From NCBI GenBank assembly GCA_019925095.2, contig CM034412.1:868001-932000 (forward strand): DNA of 64,000 nucleotides. Reading direction: 5' to 3'. The translations under genes and the position numbers were made by a program. Below the pieces are notes generated by a model. It did not search any database and had not been told where the DNA came from. It was given only the letters and a program-made list of their open reading frames with translations. The DNA comes from Dendrolimus kikuchii (lineage: Eukaryota; Arthropoda; Insecta; Lepidoptera; Lasiocampidae). Of this stretch, positions 20,087 through 62,800 are shown piece after piece (positions within the stretch are counted from its first letter, which is position 1; every line of letters begins with the position of its first letter).

Positions 20087-20092
20087 TTTATT
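20087..20092 (-). terminator. Candidate poly(A) signal for the short epsinR isoform
   Basis: AATAAA on the minus strand, about 250 nt after the exon-11 stop codon. Confidence 0.3.
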
Positions 20093-20340: not shown

Positions 20341-20810
20341 TCATTGCAGAAACGAGTTCTGATTAACGAAAGGCTGTCGCACGATGTTGTTGTTGGTCTG
20401 CCCACTACCCATTAAATTCTGCCCACTACCTATTAAATTCTGCCCACTGCCCATTAAATTCTGCCCACTACCTATTAAATTTTGCCCGCTGTTTTGCATG
20501 AAATTATTGTTAACCGATTGCATATATTGAAAGCCGCCCATGATATTTGAATTTTGACCGTGCGCCGGGCTATTGGGGCTCGATTTCAATTGGTTTATAG
20601 ATGGCGCCGGCGTCGCTTTGGGTGACTTGGGCGCGAGTAAGTTATCAACGTCGATGTTTATAGCGCCCTTGGTGTCGGCCCACGTTGCGCCTAATTTCGT
20701 GCTGGGTTTGTTAGTAGTGTTGTTAATCGGTTGTGGCGGCTGATTCTGATTGGCCGGCGCTATTGGTTGCAACAAACCTATTTGTGTCGGCTGCATAGCT
20801 GATTGGGATC
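20341..20810 (-). CDS. lqfR: lqfR exon 11: terminal exon of the short isoform
   Basis: Acceptor TTGCAG|GATCC, phase 1, so the exon-10 G plus GA makes Gly; reads on as [18 protein letters not shown]. Contains the CLINT1-like block [20 protein letters not shown] (about 55 residues in) and then a low-complexity tail with five tandem heptapeptides of the GQNL(I/M)GS type encoded by a 21-nt repeat at about 20395-20490. Ends NSFLQ and TGA at 20343-20341. Confidence 0.9.
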
Positions 20811-23800: not shown

Positions 23801-26800
23801 TGTGCATGATGCCGACAGTTAAGTTTATTACGAGATAGGAAAAAAAGCCATACAAAAACGTACACAACTGCGCAGATTTTACTAATTTTTGCAACTTAAA
23901 AGGTACTTTTTATTACTTAATTGTTATCGTTATTGATAGTGGGTGTAATGCTATATAGAGTGTACCATTGTATAGAAGACAAGCTAAACCAACCAAAGCC
24001 AAGTGATTTCGACGCTTAAGGGAGGTTTTCGTTAAATCGAGTGACGTTACATGGAGTTTACACTGCAATTATAATCAATATTTATTTCGTAGGGAAATTT
24101 ACGATGACGCTACAAGTTACGTCTTATCACTTTTATGAATATGTCAATCATATAATCTTATTTCAAATAGACTTTAGACACGCTGAGATATATAACCGGC
24201 AGCAATAGTATAAGAATGGGTAAATGAAACAACAAGTAAGACAAAAGCTTTATTAATAAAAATTAGTTTTCACAAAACATTACATTCTTATTAAATGCAG
24301 ACATCTAGAGCTATTATCTAACAGACATTAAAATTCACTCACTAAGATAATTCTTAAAATTATACTTTTAAATGCATTACAGTTAAAAATTAACACTTAT
24401 TTCATCGTTGGAGCTGTGTCTATGATTCAGCTTCCTTAATTATTCGGTGTCTTAGTTATCCACCGATGCCGAAACGTATTACAAGGTTAAACTATATTTT
24501 AACTGCTTTAGCCCGGTGTTTTGTATTGTGTGTGCTAGTCACGAAAACTTAAGGAAATACTATAACTCAATGTTGTTACGGTGGCATATTCTAGACCAGG
24601 GAACCCGATTCTGCTATTACCATCACAATTGTCGACCACTAGCGTTATAATGACTGTTTCTGTATGAAAACAAAGCCATTATGACTGCAGCGGTCGACCA
24701 TTCTAACGATATATATAATTCATATGTTGTAAAATCTAAAAACCTCGATATATATAATGGCAGCCCTCATACATTTTTCCAAGAAATATCCGAAATTGAT
24801 TAATATTTTTATTTTTTTGTATTAATATTCCAATATGTAAATTTTTTATTTGACAATTTATAAAACATGATACATGATCTGACTTCCTATAATAAGGAGT
24901 GTATTATCATGAGCATTGTTTAGATTTAAGCCGGATGTATGTGACGTATCTCCTGTTGACGGTCTATAATAAATAAATAAATTTATTGTAATAACAGAAT
25001 TGGGGTCAGGGCCGGTAGCCATCCAGACGGTCAAATACCCTGCCACCTGACTCAAGTTGTTTTGTCGCCTCGTGAGACAAACCACCCAAACGCAAGAATT
25101 AGTATTCCTTCTCTGTTATGTGATAAAGCTAACAATGAATTCCATGTCCAATTAGGAGCCCGGGGTCCCCTTTCCTACTTTTTCGTCATCACTTCGCGTC
25201 ATTGCGTCTCTATAGACCAGAGAAATTCGACGAATATTACCTATATTAAAGAGCAGTATCTAATATCAAGAGAAAGGTAAGATTAATCGTCTTCAAATAA
25301 GGCTTTATCAATCAATCCCAACACCTGTCCAGCAAATATTGCAGTTTCCGAGTTAACACCACCGAAACGCAGAGATGTCAGATCAATGTTGGACAAACAC
25401 TCGACCAGCCAAGATCTAAAATCTAATATTAAATCGAAAAATTCAAACTTCAACACAGATGAAGGTAGGACCAGAACTACAGAAGCTAAGAGCGATATGA
25501 CACACGACTGGAACTTTGGATCCTGCGTGTACCGTAAATAGACTAAAATCTGCAAAATCTCCGAACAGTATTTCCTGCAATTCGGGCAGTTCTTCGACGC
25601 CAAAATTACATTACCGACAACTTGCAGATATTTAAACAGCAAAATATTATCAATGTCTTGTTTTAAACTGTGTCGGCTCAAACTGAGCTGTTTACAACCG
25701 AAACCGTTGACAAGTGGATAGAAAAAACTATCGGAAACTTCTGCAAATCTATTAACGGTAGCTTTCGCAAAAGGATGCTGTCTTTTCGTATGAAAATATC
25801 TAGTTTTACTCAGCAATCTTTGTCTTATTAGTTCTTCTGGATTATTATCACTTAACTCTTCATTAACGTTATGTAACTCATCTTTCATATCGTTATCACT
25901 ATCAAATTGGTTTGAAATCTTATTTACAGCTTCTGATAAAACATCTAACATAAAAATTTTAGTAGCAATAGAATATCTACCAACATCTGTATGGAACTCT
26001 TTACAGATATACTCGGCACAAACTTTAGGTTGACTACAAACTATAGCAACACATGTATCAAATTTGATACTATCAAAATCATCTACGTGATACTTAGCTT
26101 CTAAATGTACGAATAAATCTAGCAACTCGGTGGCTATTTTAGAATCTTCTCCCTTAAGTTGTTTCGTCACCAATTCTTCGGATACTTCTAAACTTTCTTC
26201 GAACAAAACAGCGTCTTTTGCTTCGACAATATTTTCAATCAAATCACGCAGATACAGCGGTCTCTTTCCTGCATTCACGGGTATGTCGTTAGTCATATCA
26301 TAAGGTACTAAATCATCATCAGAATCTAGCTCTTCCTTATCGTACTTTTGCAAGGCATCTAATTTAACGGAAATAATCGTTTTTACTATCTCCTTAGTTT
26401 GCTCTGGACTTTTAACTGCACAAGTTGTTACAGTATTACGTATTCTTCTTGCTTCTACGTCAGCATCGATTACTCTTTCAGCTATTCTATCTAGCACAAG
26501 TTTTAAATCGATTACATTATATTTGCTATCTTTGGGAATCTTTCTATCTCTATCTATCAAGCACTTATTTGATAGATCTTTTAATATTTTATGTATTTCT
26601 ACACACGCATCGCCCATTTCCTTGTAGTCGAAGTTTAGTGAATTGGACGCTTCTGTATCATTCTTTTCAATGTCTGACAAGATTTTTAATATTATCTCAA
26701 CGGAAGCCATCCCTGTGCATCTAAATTCTTTTGACAGTACATCGAGATGTTTACTCATACCTTTAAATAGTATCGATTTTAATTCTATTAGATTATAATC

Positions 26801-29800
26801 GATATTATTCTGTACCGATAAAATAACTCGATATTTCACTGCCAGTACAAGTAACTCAGAAATGTACATATGTTGGTGAATGTTTTGCGCTGAGGAAATT
26901 TTAACGTCAGCCCAAACACGACACAATCTTAAAACCAAATCTGTTAAAATCGAAATACTATTTTTAGATGTAGAAATATAGTGAATCAAATTTCCCACTA
27001 TAGCTGTGTTTTTGAAATCTTTGGGTCTCGTGTAAAATGGTATTTTGTAAGTTAGTATCTCAGCCCAGTCTTTACTCGTATCTATGTTATCGCCAAGTAA
27101 GTTTGTTATTACATGTGTATCTGATTTATAATCTATCGGCGCTCTGCTTAATAATATCAAACCCAAATTCTCTATAGCTTGTCGACTTAAATGTTTTAAA
27201 AGGGTTTGAATAAGTTTTCTTTTAATAAATTTATTTTTTTCTTCATATTTGTTACTACACCAATATATTATTATATCAATAAAATCTAATATGGCAACAC
27301 AATTACCGTCCATAGAGAAATTCGTAACGACTTTCGACAGCATATAAGACAGAAAACTCATATCATACTTGACACCTTGAAAGAAATTACTATCTGATAG
27401 GAAATCTATACTTCTTACAACGTGGAATATGAGAAAATAACAATAATTTTCCCGTGATAAATCTTTCGGAGTTTTCATTTGCAGTTTATTGGCAACCCTC
27501 TCTGGTAATGTTGCTAGCATACGAACATAATTCTCCCAATCATTGAATATTTTATCATTATCTTGATTATCATTCTGTAGACGGCTGATATCCAAAATGG
27601 AGGTTAAAATGGCGTCACTTTTAACATATTTAAGAGTCAATACTACCAATGCCTGTAGAATGTCCGGATCAGTCTCACTCTTAAGAAAACCACATAATAC
27701 TGTCAATATTTCGCAGCTCAAGGGAAAATTTTCATCCAGTATAAACAGTTTAGTAATTTCCTCCTTTAAATTAGTCCAATCCACCAACAAAAACTTAATG
27801 ACCGCTGTAATTAATTGTGAATATGTCTCCAAAACATCGTTTCTCATCAAAATTTCATCGACTCTCATCAGTTTTTGTACAGTGATCGGTCCTGGTAAGT
27901 ACATTTGCAAATTGTCGAAATGCCTTTTCACATTCTTCATATCATTTTCAGATTTAATCTTCTGGATGATATGTATAGTTTGTATGAACCGATTCATCAC
28001 TTGTGTTATTATTTCTTCAGTCTTCGATTTATCGCCTGTAAATAAAAAATGCATAAATGTGCCCAAAATTTCCTCAAGTTTTCACCAAAATTACAAAAAA
28101 AAAAAAAGAAAAAAAACACGGTAATTGATGGCGCCGCGAAATGTCCAAAAAAATTTGGAATAGGAATGATAAAATCGCCAAAAACGTAAAACCGTAAAAT
28201 ATTTTCAGGTTTAAACTAACTCTGCCACGTGCATTTTCATTATTTAAACGTATATTTTTTTTATTTGGCTTCACAACCACATTCACCATTTAAATCAGAT
28301 ATTTAAATTTATCTAACCATTTTTTTTTGTATTTTGATATATTTTATAAATTCTTTCAAATCCAATTTTAGATAAAACGTGACGATATGCTCAAGTATTT
28401 CAAAAAACGATCGATTACGTTAAATATTTAAAAAAGGGTATATCCGGCTTTCAAAGAGAAATCTGCCCCCGCCGCGTTTGCTGTTAATAATAATAATCAG
28501 CAGACAAACACACACATTGTATATCCCCAAGCTAAGCAACTTACGCTTGTGTTACGGGTAATATACGACGGAACACTCTGGGGCCGATCCGAGACACCCA
28601 GTCCATAGTAAATAACAAAAAGTTCGTTTCCGAAATTTACCAGGCCAGGAATCGAACCCGGAGCCTCTGCCCGCTCAACCACAGAGGCCATAAAAAAAAA
28701 TAATTTACATGTTAAAAACAATGGGTTTTTAAAAAAAATCTCGAAATCTTAAGAAAAAAACTGAAAATTTGGAAGAATTATTTTTATGTCGTGACATAAC
28801 GATCTCCGTAATAAAAACAGATTTCTCTTCAAAACCCTTTAAGATTTAATTCTCTTAAGTCAAAAAACACATTTTCAAGGTTTTTTCAATTGATAATAAC
28901 AAAAATAAAGATAAATAAACTACACTTGCCTGTAATGTTAGGTTGTAACATAGTGTTTGCTAGTTGGCCTGTCAATGCGTCCAAAGGGGAGAACATCTCT
29001 GCCTGCCCCATCGGGGCTAGGGATGGAGGGGGCGATAGCTCGCTCAAAAGATCCAAGTTCGATGCCGGACCACTACCTAAAACCAAAAGTTAAGAATACG
29101 ATCAAAAATCCGGCACGAAGGACCAATGTTCGCCATGTATACATTGTTTTGTCCTTAGACAAACATTGTTGTCCAATACAAACAGGATTTTTTTCAATAA
29201 AAGAGCACTTAACGATGTTTAGACAACTTAAACCACATCTAAAGATAAATACAGTGTAAACTCCATGTAACGTCACTCTATTTAACGACAAACTCCTTTA
29301 AGCGTCGAAATCACTTAGCTTTAGTTGGTTTAGCTTGTCTTCCATAAAATGATACACTCTATATAGCATTACAGCCACTCTCAATAACGACAACAATTAA
29401 GTAATAAAAAGTACGCTGTGTACGTTCTTTTATCGCTTTATTATCCTAGCCCGTAATAAACTCGACTGTCGGCATCATGCATACCGAAATTCCTAAGTAC
29501 TTCCTTTATCACCAAAATGCCTCAATATCGCAAGTTAATAATAAAATAAGTAAAAAAATACAACAAAATTACTGGTGCAGTAAAAGACGTCCGAGAAAAA
29601 TAACAGACTTCTCTCCATTTAACGACAACTCTTTATAACGCCATAAAATGCACAGTCCCTTCAGTGTCGTTATATAGAGTTTACACGGTATTAGTAACAA
29701 TATAACTAAAATTTGATTCAAAAATTCATCTCCTATGAAAAAAACAAGGTATAGGTGCGCAGAGACAGCGAACTGAGCTAAGTTATGCAATTTCAAAAAC

Positions 29801-30273: not shown

Positions 30274-33200
30274 TTTCTTTTACTTATGACTTGAATTTGC
30301 ATTTATGTCTTAGGACTTGAATTTTTACTTATGACTTGATTTTTCATTTATGACTTGATATTTCACTTAGGACTTGGATTTTTACTTATGACTTGAATTT
30401 TTACTTGTCTTGATTTTTGACTTGATTTTTCACTTCGGACTTGATTTTGCATTTATGACTTGATTTTTCACTTATGACTTGATTTTGCATTTATGACTTG
30501 ATTTTTCATTTAGGACCTGGATTTTTACTTATGACTTGAATTTGCATTTATGACTTGATTTTTGACTTAGGACTTGAATTTTTACTTATGACTTAATTTT
30601 TCACTTATGACTTAATTTTGCATTTATGACTTCATTTTTCACTTAGGACTTGAATTTTTACTTATGACTTGAATTTTTATTTATGTCTTGATTTTTCACT
30701 TATGAGTCAGATTTTAACCTACGACTTATTTTTAACGTATGACTTACAAAAAAACATTCCTAGTCGGACTCATATTGAAAAAAACTTGTATATTTTTACA
30801 TAAGAATCAATAAATAAAATAAAATAATCGAACCAACCTGACGTAGACATAATATCGTTTCCACTCATCCCACCGCTGAATGCACTCGTGAAATCTGCAA
30901 AGCCATCATTATTGTTCTGGGAACTAGGCTGTGCCGGGGCCACCGGAGGCATAGACATGGCAGGCACAGACGGGATAGCCGGGATAGATGCAAGCGGCAC
31001 GGATGGCACAGTCGAGGTGGGAGCACTCCCAAACGCATTTGCAAAATCACCAAATTCATTGGAATCGCGTTTCACAGGCTTCGGTTCTTCAGCTCTGAAA
31101 TACAAGACAGCACGATTAAAGTAATCCGTTTGTTGTGAATCATCCTAGCTAATAGTATTTTCTGATGGCTTACAAGAAATATATATTTGAGTATCGTTGG
31201 TGTAAAAATGAAACTTAAAATGGTTTATATGGATTGCAATATCAGCCGAGTATAATATTAAATGAAATGAATGAAATATGTTATGGTGTTTGAAAGAGAA
31301 GAAACCAGAACGAATGCAAGGATAATGGTCGACGATGTTACGCTGGAGCAAGTGAGTGAGTTTGTATATCTTGGATGTGCTTTTGGCAGGGATGGAAGGT
31401 ACACCGCTGATATACAAAAAAGAGTGAATTTGGGGAATAGTCTGAATGGAGCGTTAGGTAAACTTCTAGGCGCTAAGAACCTCAGCCAGAAGGCCCAGCT
31501 CGCCATACACAACGCGGTGCTGGTACCTACGCTCACGTATGGAAGAGAGAGCATGAAAGTAAAGTAAACGCGGTCGAGATGCGAGCACTGCGCAAAATCT
31601 GCGGAGTGACGCTCGCGGACCGCGTTCCTCATACCGAAGTAAGAAAGAGAGTTGGTCTGAAAGAGAGTGTCGGGGTGAAGGTAAGGAAAGGAATGCTCCG
31701 GTGGTTCGGGCATGTGGAAAGAATGCATGATGAAAGAATGACTAAGCAGATATACAATGCAAAAGTGGATGGATGCAGAAGTCGTGGAAGGCCACGACAC
31801 ACCTTCCATGATCAAATTGATCGTGTACTAGCAGAAGATGATGTCAGGAGCCTTAAGAACAGACGAGCGTGCATGACAAGAGTTATGAATGTCAATGAAG
31901 CAAGTGAGGTGTGTAAGAATAAGCCTAAATGGCGCTCTGTTGTTCGTGCCTACCCCACAAGGGAACTGGCGTGAAGTTATGTATGTATGTATGTATGAAT
32001 GAAATATTTATTCTTGCATAAATGTAGTTGTATATAGGTAATATTCTTAGAAATACATGGTTCAGTACATTTGACCAGTTCCACTGGTGTGCAAGTAAGC
32101 AGGATCTTAATCGTCATTATTTAAATAATTATTTCCTATTTATTTTATTAAGTACCTTTTATGTAAACTGGATAATATTTATTAATTATATAGATATCTG
32201 TTTTTGATAAAACTATTATCGTAATCTGTGTATGTCAATTATTTAATATCTAATTTAAATATTATTATTAATTATGTATTGATATTATATTTCAAATTTG
32301 TCATTTAGGAATTCGTTTGTGTAATAATATGATTTGTCTATTAATAATTGCTTTGGTCTTGTTTTAAATATATTTAATGGAATTGTTTTCAACGATTTTG
32401 GTGGTTTATTAAATATTGTAGGTGCCATTTCGTAAACACTCTTATCCAACAGTGCCGTATTATATCTATTAACACACAGTACATTTGATTCTCTTTTTCT
32501 CAAATTTTTTATAAATATAAACAGTATTGGACCCAAAATTGACCCTTGTGGTACTCCCCTTTTGACACATAGCTTCTCAGATACCTTGACCGAGTCATTA
32601 CTATGATTGAGCTTCATGGCTATAAGAGTACTTATAAGAACCAAAAACGTTTTAGAAAATTGCTTTTGCGCTCATTTAAAACTAAATCATATAGTTGGTT
32701 AATCAAACATTATTTTTAGGACATAAATTATTTTTTTAATTATAAATAGGTTTCAATTCCAAAATTTATAGTTCCAGTTATATACATAATTTCAGACATT
32801 TCAAAATAATTTTCATTACAATGGTATTGTTTTTAACGATTTTGGTAGTCTATTAAATATGGTAGGTGCCATTTCGTAAACACTCTTATCCAACAGTGCC
32901 GTATTATATCTATTAACATACAGTACATTTGATTCTCTTTTTCTGAAATTTTTTATAAATATAAACAATATTGGACCCAAAATTGACCCTTGTGGTACTC
33001 CCCTTTTGACACATAACTTCTCAGGTACCTTGACCGAGCTATTACTGTGATTGAGCTTCATGGCTATAAGAGTACTTAATAAGATCCCAAAAATTTTTAG
33101 AAAATTGCTTTTGCACTCAGTTAAAACTAAATTATATAAATGGTTAATAATCAAAGATTATGTTTATGACATAATTTTTTTTTTAAATTATAAATAGGTT

Positions 33201-35783
33201 TCAATTCCAAAAGTTATAGTTCCAGTTATATACATAATTTCAGACATTTCAAAATAATTTTCATTATAATGGTATTGTTTTTAACTATTTTGGTAGTTTA
33301 TTAAATATTGTATGTGCCATTTCGTAAACACTCTTATCCAACATTGCCGTATTATATCTATTAACACACAGTACATTTGATTCTCTTTTTCTCAATTTTT
33401 TTATAAATATAAACAGTATTGGACCCAAAATTGACCCTTGTGGTACTCCCCTTTTGACACATAACTTCTCAGATACCTTGACCGAGTCATTACTATCATT
33501 GAGCTTCATGGCTATAAGAGTACTTACAAGAACCAAAAAAGTTTTAGAAAATTGCTTTTCCGCTCATTATAAACTAAATTATATAGCTGGTTAATAACCA
33601 AACATTATTTTTGACATTTTTTTTTTTAATTATATAGGTATATATAGGTTTCAATTCCAAAAGTTATAGTTCCAGTTATATACATAATTTCAGACATTTC
33701 AAAATAATTTTCATTATACATATATAGGTACATTTATGACATGCAATTATTTTTTAATGAATAAATATCGTATGCCTTATAAGGCGAAACATGTACCAAG
33801 CATTGTTTCTGACAAAATAAATAATTTCATTTAAATAAAAATATATATACAGTAGAACCTCTAAGTCAAACTTGAAGAGACACGCCTAAAAATTCGAGTT
33901 AATTTTTTATTATTCACAACTCTACGAACTTGACTTCCGTACCCTTTTTACAACTTAATTTTTTGAATTCAACACGCTTATTAGTTATTTTGGTTCTTGT
34001 GTGTGACATTAATTTATTGATTTTTGTGTTGAGCTGTATGTATCTTATGAATAACTTATTACATTAATTTATTCTAATTTTTATACTAAACTTATACTAA
34101 TGTAGAGTGTATCTGTTACATGCTGGTGTTGTGGGCAAGTGCATGTGCAGTGTGGGCCTTATATCTATATAATATATAGATATATGATATCTATATAAAA
34201 ATTCGAGTTATAGGGTTTACGACTTATGGAGGATTTCGACTTAAGCGAATTTTGTAAGGAAACATTCGACTTGTAAAAGTTAAGATTGTAAAATAAAAGA
34301 TTACTCGAGACACATAGGTTCAATTAATTTTTTCGAATTCACCCCATCGAGATCACACTCCCCCACCCCTCGACACCACCCCTGTGCAATGTATGTCATG
34401 TATATAAATTGCGGGTAGTTTGTATTTTAATATAATATAGTCACATATAGTTATTCTGCTCAGCGTTGCGACTATGTGCTCGGTGCAAGGCAAAATAGTT
34501 GAAATCCTTTACAGGTTTAAATAGCATTATCTCATTATTCAATGACATACATTACACCCTGGACCTGCGGACACTTCAGGGCGGTACCGTCACCAAAAAA
34601 AACTGACGCAAATATCCAATTTTTTTATTTTAATATTTTTATTCAATATGTACGGTACAGTAATATAGTCTTTTATTATACTACCCGCTACATTATACGA
34701 GGGAAAGTAAGTACTGAATTTTCTTACAGGGAGTTACTATTTATTTTGACTTATAGCGGGTTCAAATTTTGAGCAACGGAGGTTTTGAGGTTTCTGGGGA
34801 AGGGAACACATGTTTTCTTCGAGTTTGGGAGGTCTTCGACTTATCGAGGTTCTACTGTATATAATAATACATTCTCGTGATAAAAGATATCAAACATTTT
34901 ATTACATATTTTCTATCGATCAGTGAATAAGTCGCATTGGAATTCGATTTTTTTTTTTCAATGTGGCCATTTTAAATAATTCCCAGATACATTCCCGCGG
35001 GATTCCCGTGATAAAAAGTAACGCTGATTTTAACTGTAAGAATTTGCCGTCGAACAACGAATGTCGCATCGAAATAGACCCAATAGTTTCTACGTGAAAA
35101 CCGAACAAACAGACAAAAAATCTATAAAAAAATAATTAATAGCTTCAATGTACAAACACTGCATTTTTGTTATTTTTCAATATTATACATTTCTGTTTAA
35201 TATTTATTTATGTGAGAGTTCATTTAAAAAAAGATCTCACCTTGGATCGAACTCATCTTCCAAGACCAGTGAGCTTTGCCCACTGGTGGGCACGGGACAC
35301 GTCTTGAACAGGTCGTCCAACAGCTCCTGCTCCTTGTGGGTCAGCTTGCCCACTTGTGGGACGATTGGCGGTGTGGTCGACGAAGCGCCTTTGCCGAAAC
35401 TCGCTGCAGCACCTACAAAGAAAAAAACACGTTAAGGGCAGGCTATCTTCGATCTGTCATGTTCATGCACTAAATGCATGTTATCATGAAAATATTAAAC
35501 AGTTTTAAGATATATCTTAAGTATAATATATTTTCGCGAGTCGTATACATAATAAAACTATTATTATTTATTTATTTCAGACACAAAGATCCATAATTAC
35601 AACAAATGTTATACATTGTTTTTATTGAATTAAATGAAACCTTAAAAAATTAAATATAAATGTTCATTAGTCAGTTAGTCCTTTATTGAAGCATTTCGTG
35701 TGCGTGTGTGTTCGTGTGTGTGTGTGTGTGTGTGTGTGTTCGTGTGTGATAGTGTGTGTTCGTGTGTGTGCGTGCGTGCGTGC

Positions 35784-35845
<62 letters not shown>

Positions 35846-38800
35846 ATGCATGTGTGCATGCGTGCGTGTGTATATGCGTGCGTGTGTATATGGGCACGCG
35901 TGTGTACGTATGTGTGCATGTTAGCATGCATGCGTGTGTGCGCGCGTGTCTGAACATGTGCGTGTGTGGACGCGTGCGTGGGCGCAGGTACCTACCGAGA
36001 TCGATCTTCTTAACGGGCGTGCTGGGCTTCGCTTTGACGGGGCTCTTGAGGCTGATGCTGAGCGGCTTCGCGTTGTTGACTCGCTCGCTTCGATCGCTCG
36101 TCTCCGGGCGCGCTCTCTTCGGCGGACTGCTGCTTATCACCTCAGCCGTGTCTCTGTACACGTTCTCTCTGTAATTTCATACATTTTTTATAAGCAATTC
36201 AATTAAATAATTACATTACGCGCTCACGTGCTTAGTGGTAGATTTACATTAAAACATATGACTTTTAAATTGTGTATTTTGACCTGGATTTTATTTGATA
36301 ACAATTTAACATTGCAAACGTCGCGCTGAGTAGTGACATGCTGTTCTTGTAAAAAGATTAGATTTATATTTGCAAGATTTTTACATTTTTCTCATAAATA
36401 TATTTGTACACTAATTTATAAAAAAAATATTATTGCTATTATCATAACGGCTTAGACTAATAATAGATATATGATATGAAATATGTAATTATTAAATTAA
36501 ATTTTTTGTTTTGTATACTAAATACAAATCAACATAAACATTTTTAGGAACTTTCATATATGGTGTAAGTGGTGTGTAGGTTGTATCGTATTTCGTACAA
36601 CAAGTGAGAGTTCCAATGGTCCACTGCCCCCAACTCTATCCCGTCTATTGTAACCCATCCTGTCTATCCCAATCCTCCTGTCTAATCCGCTATCTCATCC
36701 CCTTTATTCCATCCCTCCTATCGCATCCTAAAGGCTGGCAACCGCTTTCCATCAGGTGAACCGTCTGCCTCTCTGCTGAACTCATACAATAAAAAAAATG
36801 ATCGGCCATCTTTCTGTTTGCCACTTTCACACAAAAATATTCTAATAACATATAGTTTTCATGTCAGATGTAAGACTTACTTCTGCGGTTTTCTATACCC
36901 ATAATCGCCGTCGGAATCTTCTCTTTCATATTCGTCCTCTTCGTTTCTTTCTTTGGGCTCATCTGAAACCATCATAATTCATCCCATTAAAATTACATAA
37001 ACAATGTAAAAAAAATAAATGATACACAAACGTAAGTACGAACGAAAATTACGAATACGTAAAAATTTACAAACGAAAATTACGAAAACGATAACTTTAC
37101 AAACGAAAATACAAGCGAAAATTACAAAACAGTAAGTATTACAAACGCAAATACGAACGAAAATTACGAAAACGATAACTTTACAAACGAAAATACAAGC
37201 GAAAATTACAAAACAGTAAGTATTACAAACGCAAATACGAACGAAAATTACGAAAACGATAACTTTACAAACGAAAATACAAGCGAAAATTACAAAACAG
37301 TAAGTATTACAAACGAAAATACAAGCGAAAATTACAAAACAGTAAGTATTATAAATGCAAATACAAATTAAAATTACGAAAACAATAACTTTACAAACGA
37401 AAATACAAGCGAAAATTACAAAACAGTAAATATTACAAACGCAAATTACGAAAATAATAACTACAAACGAAAATTATAAAACGGTAAATATTACAAATGC
37501 AAATGCAAACGAAAATTACGAAAACAATAATTACAAGCGAAAATCACAAAACAGTAAAAATTACAAATGCAAATATGAACGAAAATTACAAAATGGTAAA
37601 AATATTACAAACGAAAATTACGAAAACATAACACAAACGAAATATAAAAATTAAATGGCACATGAAACTCACCCCAGGTGGAGCCGCGGTCGCTGTACTC
37701 GCCCCATCCCCCGGAGCTGCCTCTCATCCCCATCGACACCGCCTCCGATGACATACCTACACATATGCAAGAAAATAATTTAAAAACTATTAAGTTTAGA
37801 ATGTTTGTAAGCATGTATCCTGTTTACTCACAATTAAAATTAAGTTTTGTTACATCTATGCAAGTTTTTAATAAGATTTACTAACTGCACTTCGATTTTA
37901 ATTATCTGGACTAAAATGACAGCTCCAATCGACCTATATTTCAAACTCGGAGCAACTCACCACAGCGAGGTGAATCGTACAGAAATTCACAGATTTCCCA
38001 GAAATTCTCTACAATTCAAAACTCAGCTCTGAATAAAAAAAAGGTCCTCCGCAGCTGTCATTTTAGTCCAGGTAATCTCGTGTTCTCTTCTAATCCATCA
38101 AGTGCTATTAATCAGTTAGGTGTATCTCCCTTTCAACATCTACTAGGTAACTCGTATTTAGGTCACCCATCATCAATGTTGCTTTTCGCACAACCCCATC
38201 AGCTTTACAATAATCTAGCCCATCCCAGTCCACCAAGCTTGTACTATCCTTCAAATAATCAAGCGAAGTATAATGTTCAGCTTTCATCACCTGTACAGTC
38301 AGCATATGATACGGTACAGTCTCAAACAATACCTAAAGAAGAAAATGAGGTAGGTTCTCACAGGGATTATAGCACGGATGCAGACTTTTAATTCCAAATT
38401 TAAAAATCATAGCATATCAATGAATCAATCAATCAATAAGACTTTATTGTACACCAATACAAAAAAAGAACTTACACGTCTAAAACTATGTCTAATTATG
38501 CGCAAAGGGTGGTCTTATCCCTAAAAAGCAATCTCTTCCAGACAGCCCCAATAATAATAATAGTTTATGGGAGCTGCGGCATACGTCTAATCATCGCAGC
38601 GGACAACGAACTACTGGCTAGCGCAACGCGGGAGCGCACTATTAATAGTTACTCTATCTCGCTCGCACATCGTCCGTCCGCTCACACATTGTGCTATGTA
38701 TTGTACTAGCTGTACGACTCGTTAATATATGTACTTAAGGTTACCGTTTCCAAAATAAATGAGTTCACTTCGTGAGGCCTGATCCTCATCAGCACTCGAC

Positions 38801-41800
38801 AGTTGTATACTACTCTCTGCCATCTGAAGTATAATTTAACATCTACCTCTAGCTGCTACAAGTTCTAAGAAAATGAGAAACAGAAAGCACACAATGTTAC
38901 AGTGGAGAAACGTACCAATGTACTTGTCCTTGTTCTTCTTCGCCTTCTTCCTCTCTTCTCGTAGTTTCTCGTCGTCCTGAATGAAGTCGATCAACTCACG
39001 CACTTTATGCCTTACATTTATACCCTGAAACATAAATGTTGGAACATAGATTAAATTCATATATCAAAAATCTAGTGTTACGAGATAACCACCACAGTGG
39101 CCATAAGAACCATAGTGTACATTAATATCACATAGACGGTCATCATAGATAATATTTTTAGTCGATTTAACAGATAATTCGATTTATAACTAAATTACCA
39201 TTTTCTAATCCTTAGTTAATTTTATAAGCCCACTAAATTATCGTCTGGATAATTTACTGCGTCAGTAACTAATTATTATAATTGTTTTTATGATCCTGGC
39301 AACACTATGATGTAATTGCTATTTTTAGCAATGATGTTATTGTTTTGTAGGGTAGCATTTTTAACCGACTTCAAAAAAGAAAGAGGTTCTCAATTCGTTG
39401 GGACCTTTTTTTTGTTTTTTTTTTTATGTATGTTCACCGATTACTCCGAAATTTATGATCCGATTTACGTGATTCTTTTTTTGTTCGACGCGGCATAGCT
39501 GCCATTTGGTCCCTTAAAATTTGGCAAGGTTTGGCCCAGTAGTTTTCATTTTATGAACATATTTTATAAAAAAATCCCATTCCGTTCCATATGTACACCG
39601 ATTACGCTGAGATTTATGATCCGATTTACGTGATTCTTTTTTAGTTTATATTTATATATAAGAAAATATGTATTTAATACATGTTTTCTTATATATAAAT
39701 ATAAAAACTCAGCTTCATATTGTGGATGTCTCAATTTTTGTGCCTATCTACTTAGTATCATTGTACCCTATTTCAATTAGCTACGGCGCCGAGACAAATT
39801 ACTAAACCTATAAGTAGCTGTAACTGCAAAAATTTGGGAACTGTACTAAATTATACATACATACATAACTTGACGCCAGTTCCCTTGCGGGGTAGGCACG
39901 AACAACAGAGCGCCATTCAGGCCTATTCTTACACACCTCACTTGCTTCTTTGACATTCATAGCTCTTGTCATGCACGCTCGTCTGTTCTTAAGGCTCCTG
40001 TCTAGACTAAGACTAAATTATAAAGTGGTAAAAATAAAAATGATTCCCTTACCTGATCCTTACCGACTTCATCGACATATGTGTAGTTCTCTAAAGACCT
40101 AAGGTCGTAGATGTGCTCCCTCGCCGACGTCACCACACGCTCCGAGCCGTTGCGTACCAAATAACTTAAAAGCAGCAGGCACTGAAATATTTTTTATTTA
40201 TTTATTTATGGAAAACTTACAATCAATCATTAATTTGCTCAAAAAACATGGTGTATACATAGACCTTATTTTGTTGCTTATAAGGCTCACATGTCTTTGC
40301 CGGTCAGGTATGCAAATTTTAACATGCTTAAGACTACTTTTTTTTTATTATTATACTGTATGTCTTTCAAGACCATGGGCCATGAAAAAGGCCCGGACTT
40401 TTGGGGGGCTTGCGTGGGGCCATGGGAAGGCCAACACGTAGAGGCCCTTTGACAAATTTAATGTAAATGTGGCGCGGCACTGACCGGCGATTATCCCTGT
40501 CCACACCATATAGTAATGCACCCAAGGACAAGCCCCGGCCAGTGTAGGACTATTGTGGGCAATGAGAACAAAAGTTACAGGGCTATAGGATGGACTGCTA
40601 GTGGAACTAGGAATCCGGGTTATGGGGACTATGGCGTCTGGCCTTCGCAATGTTCGATCAACATAGAAAATGGGCAGACGGTGACTCGCCACTCGCTGAA
40701 TGGGCCCCTAAAAATGCCATAAAGACTGGGGCAACATGGGTGTAAGTGGCTAATGGGTGTAGAGAGGTGGGCTGCAGGTTCACCGAAGCTACTTCCGACG
40801 TTAGGCCATTTATCACTTCCACCCCTGGAGCTTGAGTCTTAGCTCTAGCGATCTCCACTCCGTGCCGGCTGGCAAAGGTAAGCACGGAGGCAGGTGCGAG
40901 GTGTCGCTACTCACCTAAGGCTTCGCCACAAAGCCCCCCTGCGGGATTATTATTATTATTATTAACATATCTACGGACTCGAGTTCCGTACCTTTTTTTA
41001 CTACTTAATTTCTATGAAAAAGTTTAGAGTCCATACACGCTTATTGTTTATTTTTGTTACTGTGTGTGACATTAATTTAGTGATTTTTATGTTGTGGTGT
41101 ACCTTAAGAATAACTTATTGTATTCATTTATTCTAGTTTTAATACTAAACTTATACTAATGTAGAGTGTATCTGTTACATGCTGGTGTTGTCAGGAAGTG
41201 CATGTGCAGTGTTGGCCTTATATCTCTACTTATATATAGTCCTATCTAGTGCCATTTGTGTTGGTTTTTTCTTTTCTATGCCTGGGTTATTAATTTTTAG
41301 GCTCTTTGTGTGTCTCGGTTTGTTTGTGAAGTGTGCGTGTAATGCAATGCGATGGTAGTGCGCGTTGGTTTGAGTATGTGTATAAGTTTTATTGTTAGTA
41401 ATGTGTTTGTGACTTTGTGTGGTAGACTTAAGACTACTTCAAAATTATGCAAGTCAATTTAAAACGATACAATCAATACAATACTAATTTTAGCCTATAG
41501 AATACTTTTATTTCAATAGTAATAATTCATTTATATATTTTTCATGGCTTTTGTATATAATATTCACAGTATATCATGCATATATACGTTTTTATAGCAC
41601 GAGTTCAGCAGACAGGCAGACAGCCTACTTGATGGAAAGCGGTTACCATCACCTATGGACATTTGCAACACCAAAAGTGTTACAGATGCGCTGCTGTTCT
41701 CTTAAGGGAGACTGGAACCTGGTCACTAATGCCGGAACACAACTCAAGGTTGTTATGGCGGCATACTCTAGACCAGGGGTGGTAGCCATCCAGTCGGGCA

Positions 41801-44800
41801 AATACCCTACCACCACGTCTAATGAGTAATATGCTTTTTGGATCAGAATACCTCTAAGTTTATTTTTAAATGAAATAATATTTTTAGTCATTTTTAAATC
41901 ATTTGGTAATTTATTAAAAATTAATATACCCATACAGCTAAACACATTTGATTAGACAACTAGAATTAACATAAAAAAAACTTCAACGGACAAGGGTTTT
42001 CAAATTGGACAAGTATATTAACAATCTGCCCGTAAAACTTCAAGTTAAAACTTTGTTGCGATTCGTTTTTCTACTTGTCCGTTGAAGTTTCACTTCTGCT
42101 ATGTGTCCCAGCACACATTTCGATTTTTCGCAGGTTTTGCAAATGCAAATTATCATTTGGTTAGGTTAGGTACATTTTAATGAACGCATTTTTTATTTAA
42201 ACATATTTTATTTTATCAAACAAACTGAATTCGATCCGGGATCAAAAAACACATCCATAGTATTCTCTAAAATTATGCCGCTCCTCCACGCGGCCGTAAC
42301 GCTTTTTCGCGACAGAAAAATCCTAAGACCCCGTCTATATAGAAGTTTCACTTCAAAAAACTTCGTTTAAAAAAACCAACTTCAAAAAGTAGAAAGTATT
42401 AGGTCGGGGAAAAAGTTTCTTCGCATTTTGTATAAAAATTCAAAAGGTTTTTTTATAAAGTTTATTTACATTTGACTAAAGTATGTAGGTGCCATTTTGT
42501 TGGATAACTTTTTGCCATCTTGTAGGTAGGGACGTGATCCCATTGCTATAAAAATTTTGGGGCTTCTGATAAAAAAAACTGCGACAAGTGGTTTTGGCAC
42601 TCCTCTCGTGGTGTTAACCTGACACTGCCTAAGGAATTTTACAGAGACCGAAACAGGTGAAAATCTGGAGGTGCAAGGTCAGGACTATACGGCGAATGCA
42701 TTAACACCTCCCAGCCAAACTCTCGTAATTTTTGCTGAGTGGTTAAAGATGTGTGAAGTCTAGCGTTATCACGATGAAAAACCAAACCCCTTCTATTGAT
42801 TAATTCCGGCCGCTTTCTCTCAACTTTTTGCATTAATCTCATCAGTTGTTCGCAGTACAGTTCAGAATCGATGGTCTTGCCTGGCGGTAACAGCTCATAA
42901 TGAATAATGCCCTTCCAATCCCACCATACACCCAGCATCATCTTGTTGCGAGTTAACCCGGGTTTCGCCACAGTCTGTGAAGCCTGACCGGCTTTTGACC
43001 ATGATCTTTTTCGCACGTTCTTATCGTACGTGATCCACTTTTCATCACCAGTTATCAGTTTCTTCAAAAATGGTTCGGTTTCATTACGTCGTAATAAAGA
43101 ATCACAGCTCATGAGGCACCTAAATATCGAGCTTTTTTGTGTACCCAGCTTTTTTCAAATGCGCCAAAAACATTTTGTGGTCAATTCCCAGTTCTCCAGC
43201 TACATCGTAACTACTAATACGCCGATTATGCTCCACTTTTTCAAAAATGGCATCAATTTTGTCCGTAACAGCGTGACCAGAGCGACACGCATCTTTGATA
43301 TCAAAATTTCCGGATTGAAAACGCTTAAACCAAATTTGCACTATTCTCACAGATACTGCACTAGGTCCATAAACATCGCAATTTTTTTCGCGGCTTGTGT
43401 TACATTTTTACCTTTTTTGTAGTAAAATTTTAAAATGTATCGAATTTCTTCATTAGATTCACCCATTTTAACAATAAGAAAAACAAACGAAAATCACACA
43501 CTTTCCTAATTTGAATTTGGAATTGTCTTCTTTAAAATTAAAACTTTTTAATGATACCAAAACCAGCCAGATACAAATGGTATAGCGAAAGAGATCTTAT
43601 TACCAGTTCATACGTACTATATGCGAAAAGACTTTTTCCCTAACCTATTATAAAATAACTTAATAAAGAATTTTGACTAAGAATTTATTTAGTTTATTAA
43701 GAGACAAAATAATATAAAATTTTCTACATGTTGAAGTCGGTGCCGAGCAAACCATAAAAATACCATATACACTGTTATAACAACAAAATGTTGCAAAATA
43801 TTGGCAACTGAGTTGTGTTCCGGCATCAGAAGTCAGGTTCCAGTTTCTCCTTCAAAGCCAGCAGCCCATTGGCAGCGCCTCTGGTATTGCTTATATCCAT
43901 AAGTGACGGTAACCAATTTCCATCACAGTTGGGCCGTAAGCCTGTCTGCTGTGCTTCAGCAATAAAAAAAAATACATTCTTGAGTTGTGTTCCAACACTA
44001 GTGGTCAAGTTCCAGTCTGCCATTAGAGAGCAGCAGCACATTGGTAGCACCTTCGTTGTTACAAATATCTATAGGCGATGGTAACCACTTTCCATCAGGT
44101 GGGCCGTCTGCCTGTCTGCTGAACTCATGCGATGAAACAAAAGAATAGAAGAAGAAGAAGATATTTCACCTTATATGTCCTCCGCCAATGCGCCCTGTTG
44201 TCGTGAAGCATCCGCCTCCAAAGCATCGACATCACCTCTGGGAAGTGTTCATATGTGAATGTTGCCAACGCGAGCTCCTGCATCTGCTGGCCCGTGGGCC
44301 CCCAAGCCTCGTCCGATGTCGCTTCACGCACTTTACCCTCGATCTCTGTGTAGTTCATCACTACGTTTGTGCTGTGGATGATAAAATGGTTTAAATAATT
44401 ATTAGGCATGGGCCAAAGGTGGTTTGAACCGAATACAAACTTCGGCCGAACATTCGGTTAAAACAAAATATTTGGCCGAACTTCGGTTTAATTTCACCAC
44501 GCTTTCTCGAAAGCGACACGTCGTTACTTGTTAATGTCGTGACTTAAGAACGCCGATCCTATAGTTTTTACACCATAACCTGCCTTAAAATTTTAAGTAC
44601 ATATGGGACGTCCATTAATTACGTAAGCCAATTTTGAGAATCTTTCGAAACCCCCCCCCCCCCCCCCCCGGTGAGATTTCGTAAGATTTTCCTCAACTCC
44701 CTCCCCCCTCCCCTAATCTCACGCGAGATTCTTCAAATTGTATGTTTTGGCAAACGTGTTGGATTATTGAGAAAAAAAAAACAAAAAACACAACTTGTTC

Positions 44801-59800: not shown

Positions 59801-62800
59801 TGGGTATATTTTCTTGGTATATTACGAGATAGTGATATATATCTTAAGGGTTAAAATCAAGATATTGAAACAGTATTTCATTGATATCAAAATGGTAGAT
59901 GTGTAACAGTTATTTATCATACTAGAGATTACAATATGAAAAATATGTAGAAAATTTTAAGTTAAATTATAAAGTTTCCAATCTCGCTATTTTTTATTAT
60001 ATAATGTTACACTTGTTATATTGTTACGACCGACAAAGACAAATTCGCACCTGCATTTTATTACCTTTCATTTGGCATTTGGACTTCTTTTGTTTGCTTT
60101 GTGTTTAAAATTTGTGAATAAAAAAACGGCCCATTGTGTATTGTAATCTTTTACGGCCTATTGTTGAATTGTGATCACTGCCGGGTATCTTGGATTTATA
60201 ATACAAGCTGATTCTAAGAAATTCGGTCTGTACATATTGCATTGGTACAGTATAAAACAATGCCCCAAGTGAGAGATGAGGCAGTCGAGCGATAACCACA
60301 AACGAAGCAAGACGTTTGTACATTCAGTAATCTATTTAGTGACAGACTTTGCGAGTGTTATTATATTTGTACCTGTGTTATACGTGTTTGTATAGTTCTA
60401 ATAAACTCTTCAATCATTCCAAGGGCATTTTAATTCAAGTCCTCCAACTCATAACAATATTAAAGAGTATAAGATTGTATTAATATTTTAAGTTAAACTT
60501 TAGATTAGTGGTCACTTAATTTTAAGTAGTGGGGGGGCGGAGGGCTAGTTGGGGAGGAATACTTCTCCCTTCTGCAACCCCCATGTCTAGAAGTCATGTA
60601 GTTCTTGAGATATTAATTTTTTCATTCATCTGTATCGTTATATTGCGACAATGATCACCAGCCTGTGCTGGCACTTGTCGGCTGCTGGTTTAAAGTCTAA
60701 CCTAACCTAAGTCACCGTTCTAGTCACTGGTCGCAATTTTCAACTAAAGCCCACAAGCCAAGCGAGCATGCCATGGCAGCGATCAGCGAATGTCACAACC
60801 GATTTGTATACCATTGTTGCAATATATAAGCAAAATAAAACTATTTTCATATTTAAAAATCAATAAACTAATTCAAAACTTGTTTACTAAACTCAAAACC
60901 ATTTTTAGTGTTTGTACATTAAACTTAGTGTATTCTAGAAGTGCACAATATAAATTGATATTACAAAAAATATTGATATATGAACACAATATATCGCTTC
61001 TACCCAATATTATGGAATAATTTAGTATCAATATGAACAATATATTTTATTGATACACCAAATATCATTAGAAATTAAAGATCATAGTACTTTTACTTTG
61101 TTTAACCCTTTAGCTCACTATTAGCACATATGTGTCTGTGATGAGAGTGCAGATTGCGTTTGTGCACATGATCGTTACTTGTGTTGTTGTCTCACTCTGT
61201 TTATATAGGAGTTGTATGATTTGTATGAAATGGATATATTTTCTTGGTATATTATGAGATAGTGATAGTGTTGTGGCTTTTTGGTATATCATAAGTATAT
61301 TGATAATTGTCTTAAGGGTTAAACTGATTTATGGTTGGCAACTTGAGTAAAAACAAAATGTTAAACCCTGAATTATTTAATAACTAGCATTCATAAGGAA
61401 AGTTTGTTAACAAACATACATACATACATAACTTCATGCCAGTTCCGTTGCGGGGTAGGCACTTTGTTAACAAAGTACTCTAAATTACTTCAAATCTAAC
61501 CTAACCTAACCTACAATGTATAATTGTCTCAACATCTGAAGATCAACTCCCGAGTCTCTCGAATTAACTCCCGATTTTATTTTTTTTGTAGTTTTTCAGC
61601 ATTGGACGATTATGAGATATAGTAATGAAATTATTTGATTATGAAAATAAGTAAGCTACTGATTTCATAATCATTTTTCAATATTAGTATTCGAAAATAA
61701 TTCAATTTTGACATTAGTTATGAAAAAAAATTTCAATATATTGAAGATATCCGATATATTTCTATGATATATCGCAAAGCATCAATAGAACACTATGATA
61801 TATTATATCGAAAAAAATATCGATATTTTTTTTTGTATGAACCTCCCTAGTGTATTCCTAAACACAAATCACACTTTGTTATCAACAAAAGTGGCATAAC
61901 CTTATTTATAAAACATATTTTTGTTTTTCTCATTATTCATTCAAGACTTGTTTGTGGGCCACAAAAACTTGTTTCCTAACCCAAATGACAGGTCTAGTAG
62001 CGCTATATAAGGCGTATGTTACCCCCAAAACTCAAATTACCCTTAATCTCATATCACTCTATATCAAAGCGCAGCCGTATTTTGTTATAAATGATCTTAT
62101 TCGACTTGTTAGTCCATAGAAGCTACATTTTCAATTTCCACATCCATAAATGGCACACTCATAAATACTTATAAATAATGTATATAAATAATGTATTAGG
62201 AACAGTAACAACATGTCCTGTTCGTTTGATAGATAAAAAGTAAATTTATTTAAATCAATTCCATTTACCTAAGCCAGGGAAGACTGATTTTTAGTTTTCT
62301 ATTATTATTTTTAGGTTATGATCAATTACAGGTCAGCAATAACAACTCCTGAGACTACTTTGGGATGTTTTACAGGATATATATCACATAAAACATCAGA
62401 AGTGTAATGAGTTAAAACTGTAGGTTTGTGGAATTTTAAAATATGATTATAAATAGATATGTTTTCAAGTCTTTCCAAGTGAACACAAACTAGACTATTG
62501 CAGAACCGGTCTTTAGAACAACTTTTGTAAAATTTTAACATTCATTTAAGAAGATAATTACCAAACTGTCTTCAGTTTAGCAGGAATAAAACTCAATTCT
62601 ACATTGGAACAAGAGTGATTATTAATGCAAAAAAGTACGTAAAATCACATAATGTATGCATATGAATTACGTCTGAAGGCGAAACTGATAATAAACTAAA
62701 TATTAAGTTATCCAGATGGTATTAATTAACATAAAAATGAAGTAATTCCTAAGAAAACATACACTTTATCAGCCAACTCCCGCACCTTCCACATGCTTAT

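What the first reader, a model, noticed from the sequence alone, without database searches (positions are those of the whole stretch)
25283..29076. EpsinR-Tel2 translational fusion by alternative terminal exons
The Tel2/TELO2 coding exon (28035-25283) sits inside the epsinR gene, same strand, between exon 10 and exon 11. Seen directly: it starts with a phase-1 acceptor (TTTACAG|GC), exon 10 ends in phase 1, and exon 11 also starts in phase 1, so either terminal exon can follow exon 10 in frame. The Tel2 exon has no good ATG: the only upstream in-frame one is within the polypyrimidine tract. Predicted products: 624-residue epsinR and ~1385-residue epsinR-Tel2. From memory, Drosophila lqfR was reported to express Tel2 as a fusion with epsinR; this window shows the same architecture in what looks like a moth or butterfly. 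A vesicle-coat adaptor fused to a PIKK chaperone is unexpected and suggests a conserved link or an ancient accident kept by splicing.
Basis: partly seen in the sequence, partly recalled or inferred. Interest (0 to 1): 0.93.

Follow-up and report, generated by a model that had tools for sequence, protein, structure and literature searches.

The report
Moth epsinR–Tel2 fusion gene (lqfR)
In this moth, as in fruit flies and many other winged insects, one gene appears to make either a vesicle-coat adaptor or the same adaptor fused to the Tel2 chaperone protein, by choosing between two last exons; the arrangement is already known, but a conserved stretch beside the Tel2 exon may be new.

Summary
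Exons 1–10 of a minus-strand gene (62812–28930) join in frame to a 917-codon Tel2 exon (28035–25283) or to exon 11 (20810–20341), giving 1385 and 624 residues. Except for residue 421 and 43 residues absent from the deposited model, the 1385-residue product equals a GenBank protein of Dendrolimus kikuchii. It is the lepidopteran orthologue of Drosophila lqfR, whose EpsinR–Tel2 fusion was published in 2011–2012 and noted there for 'other insects'. Of 192 long ENTH proteins listed by three searches, 186 also carry Tel2, in 11 orders; two mayfly proteins with weak Tel2 matches add a twelfth. Exon 11 is conserved, at the C-terminus of 14 gene models from four orders. About half of the lepidopteran fusions (15 of 31) have no Met near the Tel2 start. 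The fusion is known; the block, probably a splicing signal, is the new lead. No transcript data were available.

The parts
62763..62812 (-). exon 1, ATG at 62812
   Evidence: translates to P0001 residues 1-17; GT donor
44170..44371 (-). exon 2 (ENTH)
   Evidence: ENTH in P0001 residues 24-148
40053..40181 (-). exon 3 (ENTH)
38916..39024 (-). exon 4
37673..37756 (-). exon 5
36881..36962 (-). exon 6
35996..36168 (-). exon 7
35241..35412 (-). exon 8
30838..31094 (-). exon 9 (carries EFGDF, an adaptor-type motif by recall)
28930..29076 (-). exon 10, last shared exon; ends in phase 1 at a GC donor CAG|GCAAGT
28052..28069 (-). conserved intronic block ATTTTGGGCACATTTATG, 17-34 nt upstream of the Tel2 exon; candidate branch-site/splicing element
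   Evidence: read-through peptides in 23 of 23 lepidopteran-type proteins that extend 10 or more codons upstream, two of them in another frame; core at 28055-28066
28036..28051 (-). polypyrimidine tract and AG of the Tel2 acceptor
25283..28035 (-). Tel2 terminal exon, 917 codons counting the split Gly, then TAA
   Evidence: ORF; Pfam PF10193; fold
24982..24987 (-). first AATAAA after the Tel2 stop, about 300 nt downstream (candidate poly(A) signal)
   Evidence: not tested
20341..20810 (-). exon 11, alternative terminal exon (epsinR tail, 155 codons after the split Gly)
   Evidence: phase-1 acceptor and open frame; matches C-termini of 14 insect gene models
20087..20092 (-). AATAAA about 250 nt after the exon 11 stop (candidate poly(A) signal)
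   Evidence: not tested

Best explanation
This is the lepidopteran orthologue of Drosophila lqfR. One promoter (inferred) drives a pre-mRNA whose exons 1-10 encode the ENTH domain and adaptor-binding tail. From the GC donor of exon 10 (shown in the sequence) splicing either goes to the near acceptor, making a terminal Tel2 exon and a 1385-residue EpsinR-Tel2 protein, or skips to exon 11 8.1 kb downstream, making 624-residue EpsinR (both inferred for this species). The long form is taken to be the insect's only Tel2 and to work as the Tel2 subunit of the PIKK chaperone TTT (established for Tel2 elsewhere; inferred here). The fusion probably arose once, before the winged-insect orders split, and persists mainly because Tel2 lost its own start and promoter (inferred; no tree was built). 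The conserved block next to the Tel2 acceptor probably sets how often the Tel2 exon is used (inferred).
For: Exact in-frame gene model with both ends, 1385 and 624 aa. Same junction in the D. kikuchii GenBank protein. Of 192 ENTH-bearing long proteins listed over searches have precomputed ENTH and PF10193, in 11 orders. The six exceptions include two mayflies (P0185, P0212) with TELO2_ARM just under its cut-off, P0185 also with a PF10193 match under its cut-off. Exon 11's peptide matches the C-terminus of 14 of the 227 proteins held, from Lepidoptera, Coleoptera, Hymenoptera and Diptera. No common internal Tel2 start: 15 of 31 lepidopteran fusions have no Met 11-50 residues before the first conserved Tel2 motif. 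A first helix is predicted at model residues 2-23, at the very start of the exon, so an internal start would cut into the fold. In Drosophila an exon-6 probe sees only the ~5 kb fusion-size mRNA (PMC3197181) and exon 5-6 RT-PCR is reported (PMC3460857).
Against: No RNA evidence for this species. Six of 64 proteins are named lepidopteran Tel2 models without any EpsinR part (P0006, P0028, P0032, P0047, P0051, P0056); a seventh, P0040, lacks ENTH but begins in the EpsinR linker. Manduca P0006 appears to start at a Met inside the exon, as a separate Tel2 transcript would. 16 of 31 lepidopteran fusions do have a Met in the stretch examined. One of the two fly papers could not obtain a cDNA of the long form. 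Whether this is the only Tel2 was not checked: the window's genome could not be searched (nine busy replies).
Confidence: 0.88

Rival explanations
1. Tel2 is a nested gene with its own promoter in the 894-nt intron; the conserved block 17-34 nt upstream of the exon is a core promoter element, and the fusion is a minor product.
For: Six of 64 listed proteins are named lepidopteran models with Tel2 alone; P0028 reads through the block from an ATG that appears to be intronic. The block is conserved and loosely resembles an insect promoter motif recalled as YGGTCACACTR (3 of 11 letters differ, by eye).
Against: The block sits where a branch site is expected and is followed by a polypyrimidine tract and AG. 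15 of 31 lepidopteran fusions lack any Met near the Tel2 start. At the window's polypyrimidine-tract ATG only 2 of 22 aligned rows have Met, window included. With up to 2 mismatches the recalled motif is no commoner than chance in the window and does not hit the block. Drosophila Northern shows only the long mRNA with the Tel2 probe.
Confidence: 0.1
2. The fusion is kept because the two halves work together: the ENTH/AP-1/clathrin part places Tel2 at Golgi membranes, coupling PIKK assembly to trafficking. (This concerns why it is kept and is compatible with the gene model.)
For: Fusions are listed in 11 orders, plus mayflies on weaker evidence. In flies tagged full-length LqfRa looks Golgi-like while exon 6 alone is mainly at the nuclear envelope (PMC3460857, passages).
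Against: Exon 6 alone rescues lqfR nulls to wild type in flies (PMC3460857). The linker and junction vary greatly in the 26 chosen proteins aligned.
Confidence: 0.2
3. Gene-prediction artefact: fused models chain two neighbouring same-strand genes.
For: Predictors do chain exons here: 14 models run into the exon 11 tail with differing joins, and P0065 includes a reverse transcriptase.
Against: The phase-1 acceptor, the missing Met in half of the lepidopteran fusions, and exon 11 lying beyond Tel2 make Tel2 an inside exon, not a neighbour. Transcripts and protein bands are reported in Drosophila.
Confidence: 0.03

Closest known systems
Drosophila melanogaster lqfR / lqfR-tel2 (LqfRa 1415 aa, LqfRb 649 aa)
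   Same: Shared N-terminal exons, large single Tel2 exon placed before the EpsinR terminal exon, two products; Tel2 parts 23% identical over 894 alignment columns, E=4e-47
   Different: 7 exons in 7.7 kb in the fly, 12 modelled exons over about 42 kb here; the GC donor at the choice point was seen here and not checked in the fly
GenBank model K1T71_013443, Dendrolimus kikuchii (P0001)
   Same: Same protein and junction
   Different: Lacks 43 residues that are open in the window's Tel2 exon, and has Cys for Ser at residue 421 from another exon 9/10 join
Human CLINT1 (epsinR) and TELO2
   Same: ENTH and Tel2 homology
   Different: Not fused in vertebrates, nematodes or yeast according to PMC3460857 and PMC3197181; not tested here

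Membership tests
lqfR-type EpsinR-Tel2 fusion gene | ENTH exons and a Tel2 exon in one reading frame | tested here: met
   1385-residue CDS without internal stops; ENTH and PF10193
lqfR-type EpsinR-Tel2 fusion gene | second terminal EpsinR exon downstream of Tel2 in the same phase | tested here: met
   exon 11 in phase 1, 624-aa product; tail conserved in 14 models
lqfR-type EpsinR-Tel2 fusion gene | both mRNAs expressed | not testable with these tools
   no RNA data; reported for Drosophila
lqfR-type EpsinR-Tel2 fusion gene | only Tel2 in the genome | not tested
   The genome search 'own' did not answer
Tel2/TELO2 | Telomere_reg-2 domain | tested here: met
   PF10193 97.7 bits, cut-off 23.6
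Tel2/TELO2 | Tel2 helical-solenoid fold over the full length | tested here: inconclusive
   model pLDDT 79.5, pTM 0.58; Foldseek ranks TELO2 7f4u second (TM 0.36 by query, 0.68 by target) and yeast Tel2 3o4z fourteenth, among other helical-repeat proteins
Tel2/TELO2 | binds TTI1/TTI2 and PIKKs | not testable with these tools
   established for the family elsewhere (recalled; 7f4u is titled a TELO2-TTI1-TTI2 complex)
EpsinR/CLINT1 | ENTH of the epsinR type and adaptor/clathrin motifs | tested here: met
   best solved relatives Epsin 4 and CLINT1 (1xgw, 2qy7); DLF, EFGDF, DLL in the shared part; binding not tested

The most novel reading that the evidence does not exclude
A lepidopteran-wide intronic element (about RTTYTGGRCACATTY, inferred from peptides in two frames and the window's DNA), 17-34 nt before the Tel2 acceptor and opposite a GC donor, is a dedicated switch that sets how much of the cell's EpsinR transcript becomes the essential Tel2. 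Trafficking-adaptor and PIKK-chaperone supply would then be tied by one splicing decision across moths and butterflies. It could instead be an internal Tel2 promoter.
Probability: 0.45. Interest if true: 0.6.

Novelty: new member of a known kind. Interest (0 to 1): 0.42.

Why it matters
An essential chaperone subunit that seems to exist only as the tail of an unrelated coat adaptor, in winged insects from dragonflies to moths, is a clear case of an old gene fusion that looks hard to undo. It predicts that insect Tel2 level depends on a terminal-exon choice, and that 'epsinR' knockdowns aimed at shared exons in insects also remove Tel2. The conserved block by the Tel2 acceptor gives a short target for testing how that choice is made.

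Tried and rejected
A junction motif NP[LF][DE] seemed shared between mayfly, cockroach, grasshopper, some bugs and a sawfly but was found in only 13 of 192 proteins: dropped as evidence of a common junction. A promoter reading of the conserved block through a motif recalled as insect 'motif 1' (YGGTCACACTR): the window has 26 matches with up to 2 mismatches against 32.7 expected, none of them the block. The block's core TTGGGCACATTY has no second exact match in the window; with up to 2 mismatches it is at chance (12 against 11.7). A coding explanation of the block (an extra Tel2 N-terminus) was rejected: upstream sequence and starts differ, the window has no ATG between its upstream stop and the block, and P0029 and P0054 carry the same bases in another frame. 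Other insect DNA: single scans of genome contigs and viral contigs found no Tel2 relative. Rfam: no family reached its gathering score in the window. Literature: 20 of 189 listed; 11 of 11 listed; 8 of 21 listed; none. In those listings only PMC3460857 and PMC3197181 plainly treat the fusion; PMC4232348 was checked by one passage, and PMC3654919 (butterfly oogenesis, one mention of lqfR) was not opened.
Full report
What is there. On the minus strand the window holds a gene that can be modelled end to end. Exons 1–10 (62812–28930) encode an ENTH protein of the epsinR type, and two possible last exons follow: a 2753-nt Tel2 exon (28035–25283) and exon 11 (20810–20341). Exon 10 ends in phase 1 and both last exons continue from phase 1, each completing a Gly codon. 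Exons 9 and 10 have two possible in-frame joins (Ser or Cys at residue 421), which does not affect the rest. The host is probably Dendrolimus kikuchii or very near it: apart from that residue and 43 residues (in two stretches) skipped by the deposited model, the protein is identical to P0001.

What the parts are. P0001's ENTH has E=7e-44, with Epsin 4/CLINT1 as the closest solved structures. The Tel2 exon matches PF10193 (E=7e-28), and P0001's Tel2 part matches human TELO2 7f4u (E=7.5e-24) over residues 991–1305. The exon aligns with the Drosophila LqfR Tel2 part from exon residue 46 to 896 (23% identity). A model of the exon (27-sequence alignment, mean pLDDT 79.5, pTM 0.58) is nearly all helix, with a first helix at model residues 2–23. 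Foldseek ranks TELO2 second and yeast Tel2 fourteenth, among other helical-repeat proteins. So the exon appears to hold the whole Tel2 protein.

How widespread it is. The ENTH region of the moth fusion was used as a query (candidates limited to 0.55–1.75 times the query's length): 117 of the 120 listed proteins (of 277 found) carry ENTH and PF10193. The ENTH of the cockroach fusion gave 114 of 120 listed (of 252 found). One search, with the Tel2 exon, listed 64 proteins, 29 of them with ENTH. Together these are 192 distinct ENTH proteins. By species names they fall into Lepidoptera 31, Diptera 64, Coleoptera 23, Hymenoptera 50, Hemiptera 12 and, with one or two each, Thysanoptera, Psocodea, Blattodea, Orthoptera, Phasmatodea, Odonata and Ephemeroptera. 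186 of 192 carry both domains, in 11 orders. Of the six exceptions, P0072 and P0137 have TELO2_ARM above its cut-off. The two mayfly proteins have it just below, P0185 with a below-cut-off PF10193 match as well. P0098 and P0181 have no Pfam Tel2 match, though by eye Tel2-like stretches are present. Limits: several species appear more than once; the length filter excludes separate short epsinR proteins by design; more than half of the hits were not shown. These numbers therefore say where fusions exist, not how often or where they are missing. No non-insect fusion was among those listed, which does not exclude one. A single origin is inferred, no tree was built.

Exon 11 is real. Its peptide was compared with all 227 proteins held: 16 matched at E up to 0.1. 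In 14 the match is at the C-terminus (E from 4e-33 to 0.003), in Lepidoptera (5, two of them the same species), Coleoptera (3), Hymenoptera (3) and Diptera (3). The other two, P0049 and P0039, match only in a low-complexity stretch upstream of Tel2. The shared core is of the type [17 protein letters not shown]....APSINQLKS. The nesting of Tel2 before the epsinR tail is therefore old. These models splice Tel2, at differing points, into exon 11; I take this as mostly prediction artefact, but a third 'sandwich' form is not excluded.

Why a fusion and not a nested gene. In 15 of 31 lepidopteran fusions there is no Met in the 11–50 residues before the first conserved Tel2 motif. The window's polypyrimidine-tract ATG is at a position that is Arg in 20 of 22 aligned rows. 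In Drosophila an exon-6 probe detects only the ~5 kb mRNA (PMC3197181, passages). Exon 5–6 RT-PCR and two protein bands are reported, and exon 6 alone rescues lqfR nulls (PMC3460857, sections 5 and 13 and passages). Against this, 16 of the 31 do have such a Met, and 6 of 64 proteins are named lepidopteran Tel2 models without any EpsinR part (P0040 lacks ENTH too, but starts in the EpsinR linker). P0006 (Manduca) appears to start inside the exon and P0028 in the intron; a second, Tel2-only transcript in some moths cannot be ruled out.

New details. First, the exon-10 donor, the one that faces the choice, is GC (CAG|GCAAGT); the other nine donors of the model are GT. GC donors are enriched in alternatively spliced genes of human, nematode and Arabidopsis (PMC2490688, abstract seen in the listing; insects are not named there). 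Second, gene calls that run upstream of the Tel2 acceptor reveal the intron's last bases. 23 of the 64 proteins extend 10 or more codons upstream of the exon, and 23 of 23 carry the block. In 21 it reads [LSM][GD]TF[RM] in the Tel2 frame (three begin exactly there, where M may stand for a TTG start). In two (P0029, P0054), first spotted by eye, the same bases lie in another frame, so it is the RNA or DNA that is kept, not a peptide. The lepidopteran-type proteins without the block start less than about six codons upstream, inside the exon, or in exon 10 or earlier (by eye). In the 22 in-frame rows (window included) codons -11 to -6 have 0–0.9 bits of entropy, against 2.4–3.4 bits for residues 2–8 of the exon that follows. 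Some of that low entropy is set by the search pattern, although no upstream-extended protein was dropped by it. The rows are not independent: six are near relatives. Most are unnamed; the named ones and the window belong to Tortricidae, Noctuidae, Nymphalidae and Lasiocampidae (family names recalled). In the window the block is ATTTTGGGCACATTTATG, 28069–28052, 17–34 nt before the exon, which is branch-site territory. I read it as a splicing signal for the Tel2 exon; a promoter reading has no support but is not excluded.

Verdict. Observation and interpretation are sound. The fusion is a known insect trait, here documented in one more moth and listed in 11 orders, with mayflies a probable twelfth. 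The conserved block and the GC donor are the parts worth following.

Noticed in passing
window 45315-50172, minus strand: Non-LTR retrotransposon in intron 1 with two long open frames: ORF1 with a PRE_C2HC match and ORF2 with endonuclease and reverse transcriptase.
   Followed up: partly
window 42639-43154, minus strand: Mariner-type transposase fragment (Transposase_1, E=3e-25) in intron 2.
   Followed up: partly
window 28648-28680, minus strand: tRNA-like stretch (possible SINE, by recall of the B box) inside the short exon 10-Tel2 intron; the only match in the window with up to 3 mismatches.
   Followed up: partly
P0001, around residue 640: The deposited D. kikuchii model drops 43 residues (in two stretches) of the Tel2 exon that are open in the window; probably a false intron in the annotation.
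   Followed up: yes
P0037, P0052, P0045, P0066, P0053, P0132, P0146, P0147, P0224, P0181, P0179, P0078, P0098, P0117: Gene models that run Tel2 into the exon 11 tail with differing joins: artefacts, or a third ENTH-Tel2-tail isoform.
   Followed up: partly
P0065 (Phthorimaea operculella): Fusion model that also contains a reverse transcriptase domain, probably an annotated intronic retrotransposon.
   Followed up: no
window about 35680-35960 (intron 7) and 36979-37473 (intron 5): A CA-type simple repeat and a longer tandem-repeat-like tract, seen as repetitive open frames.
   Followed up: no
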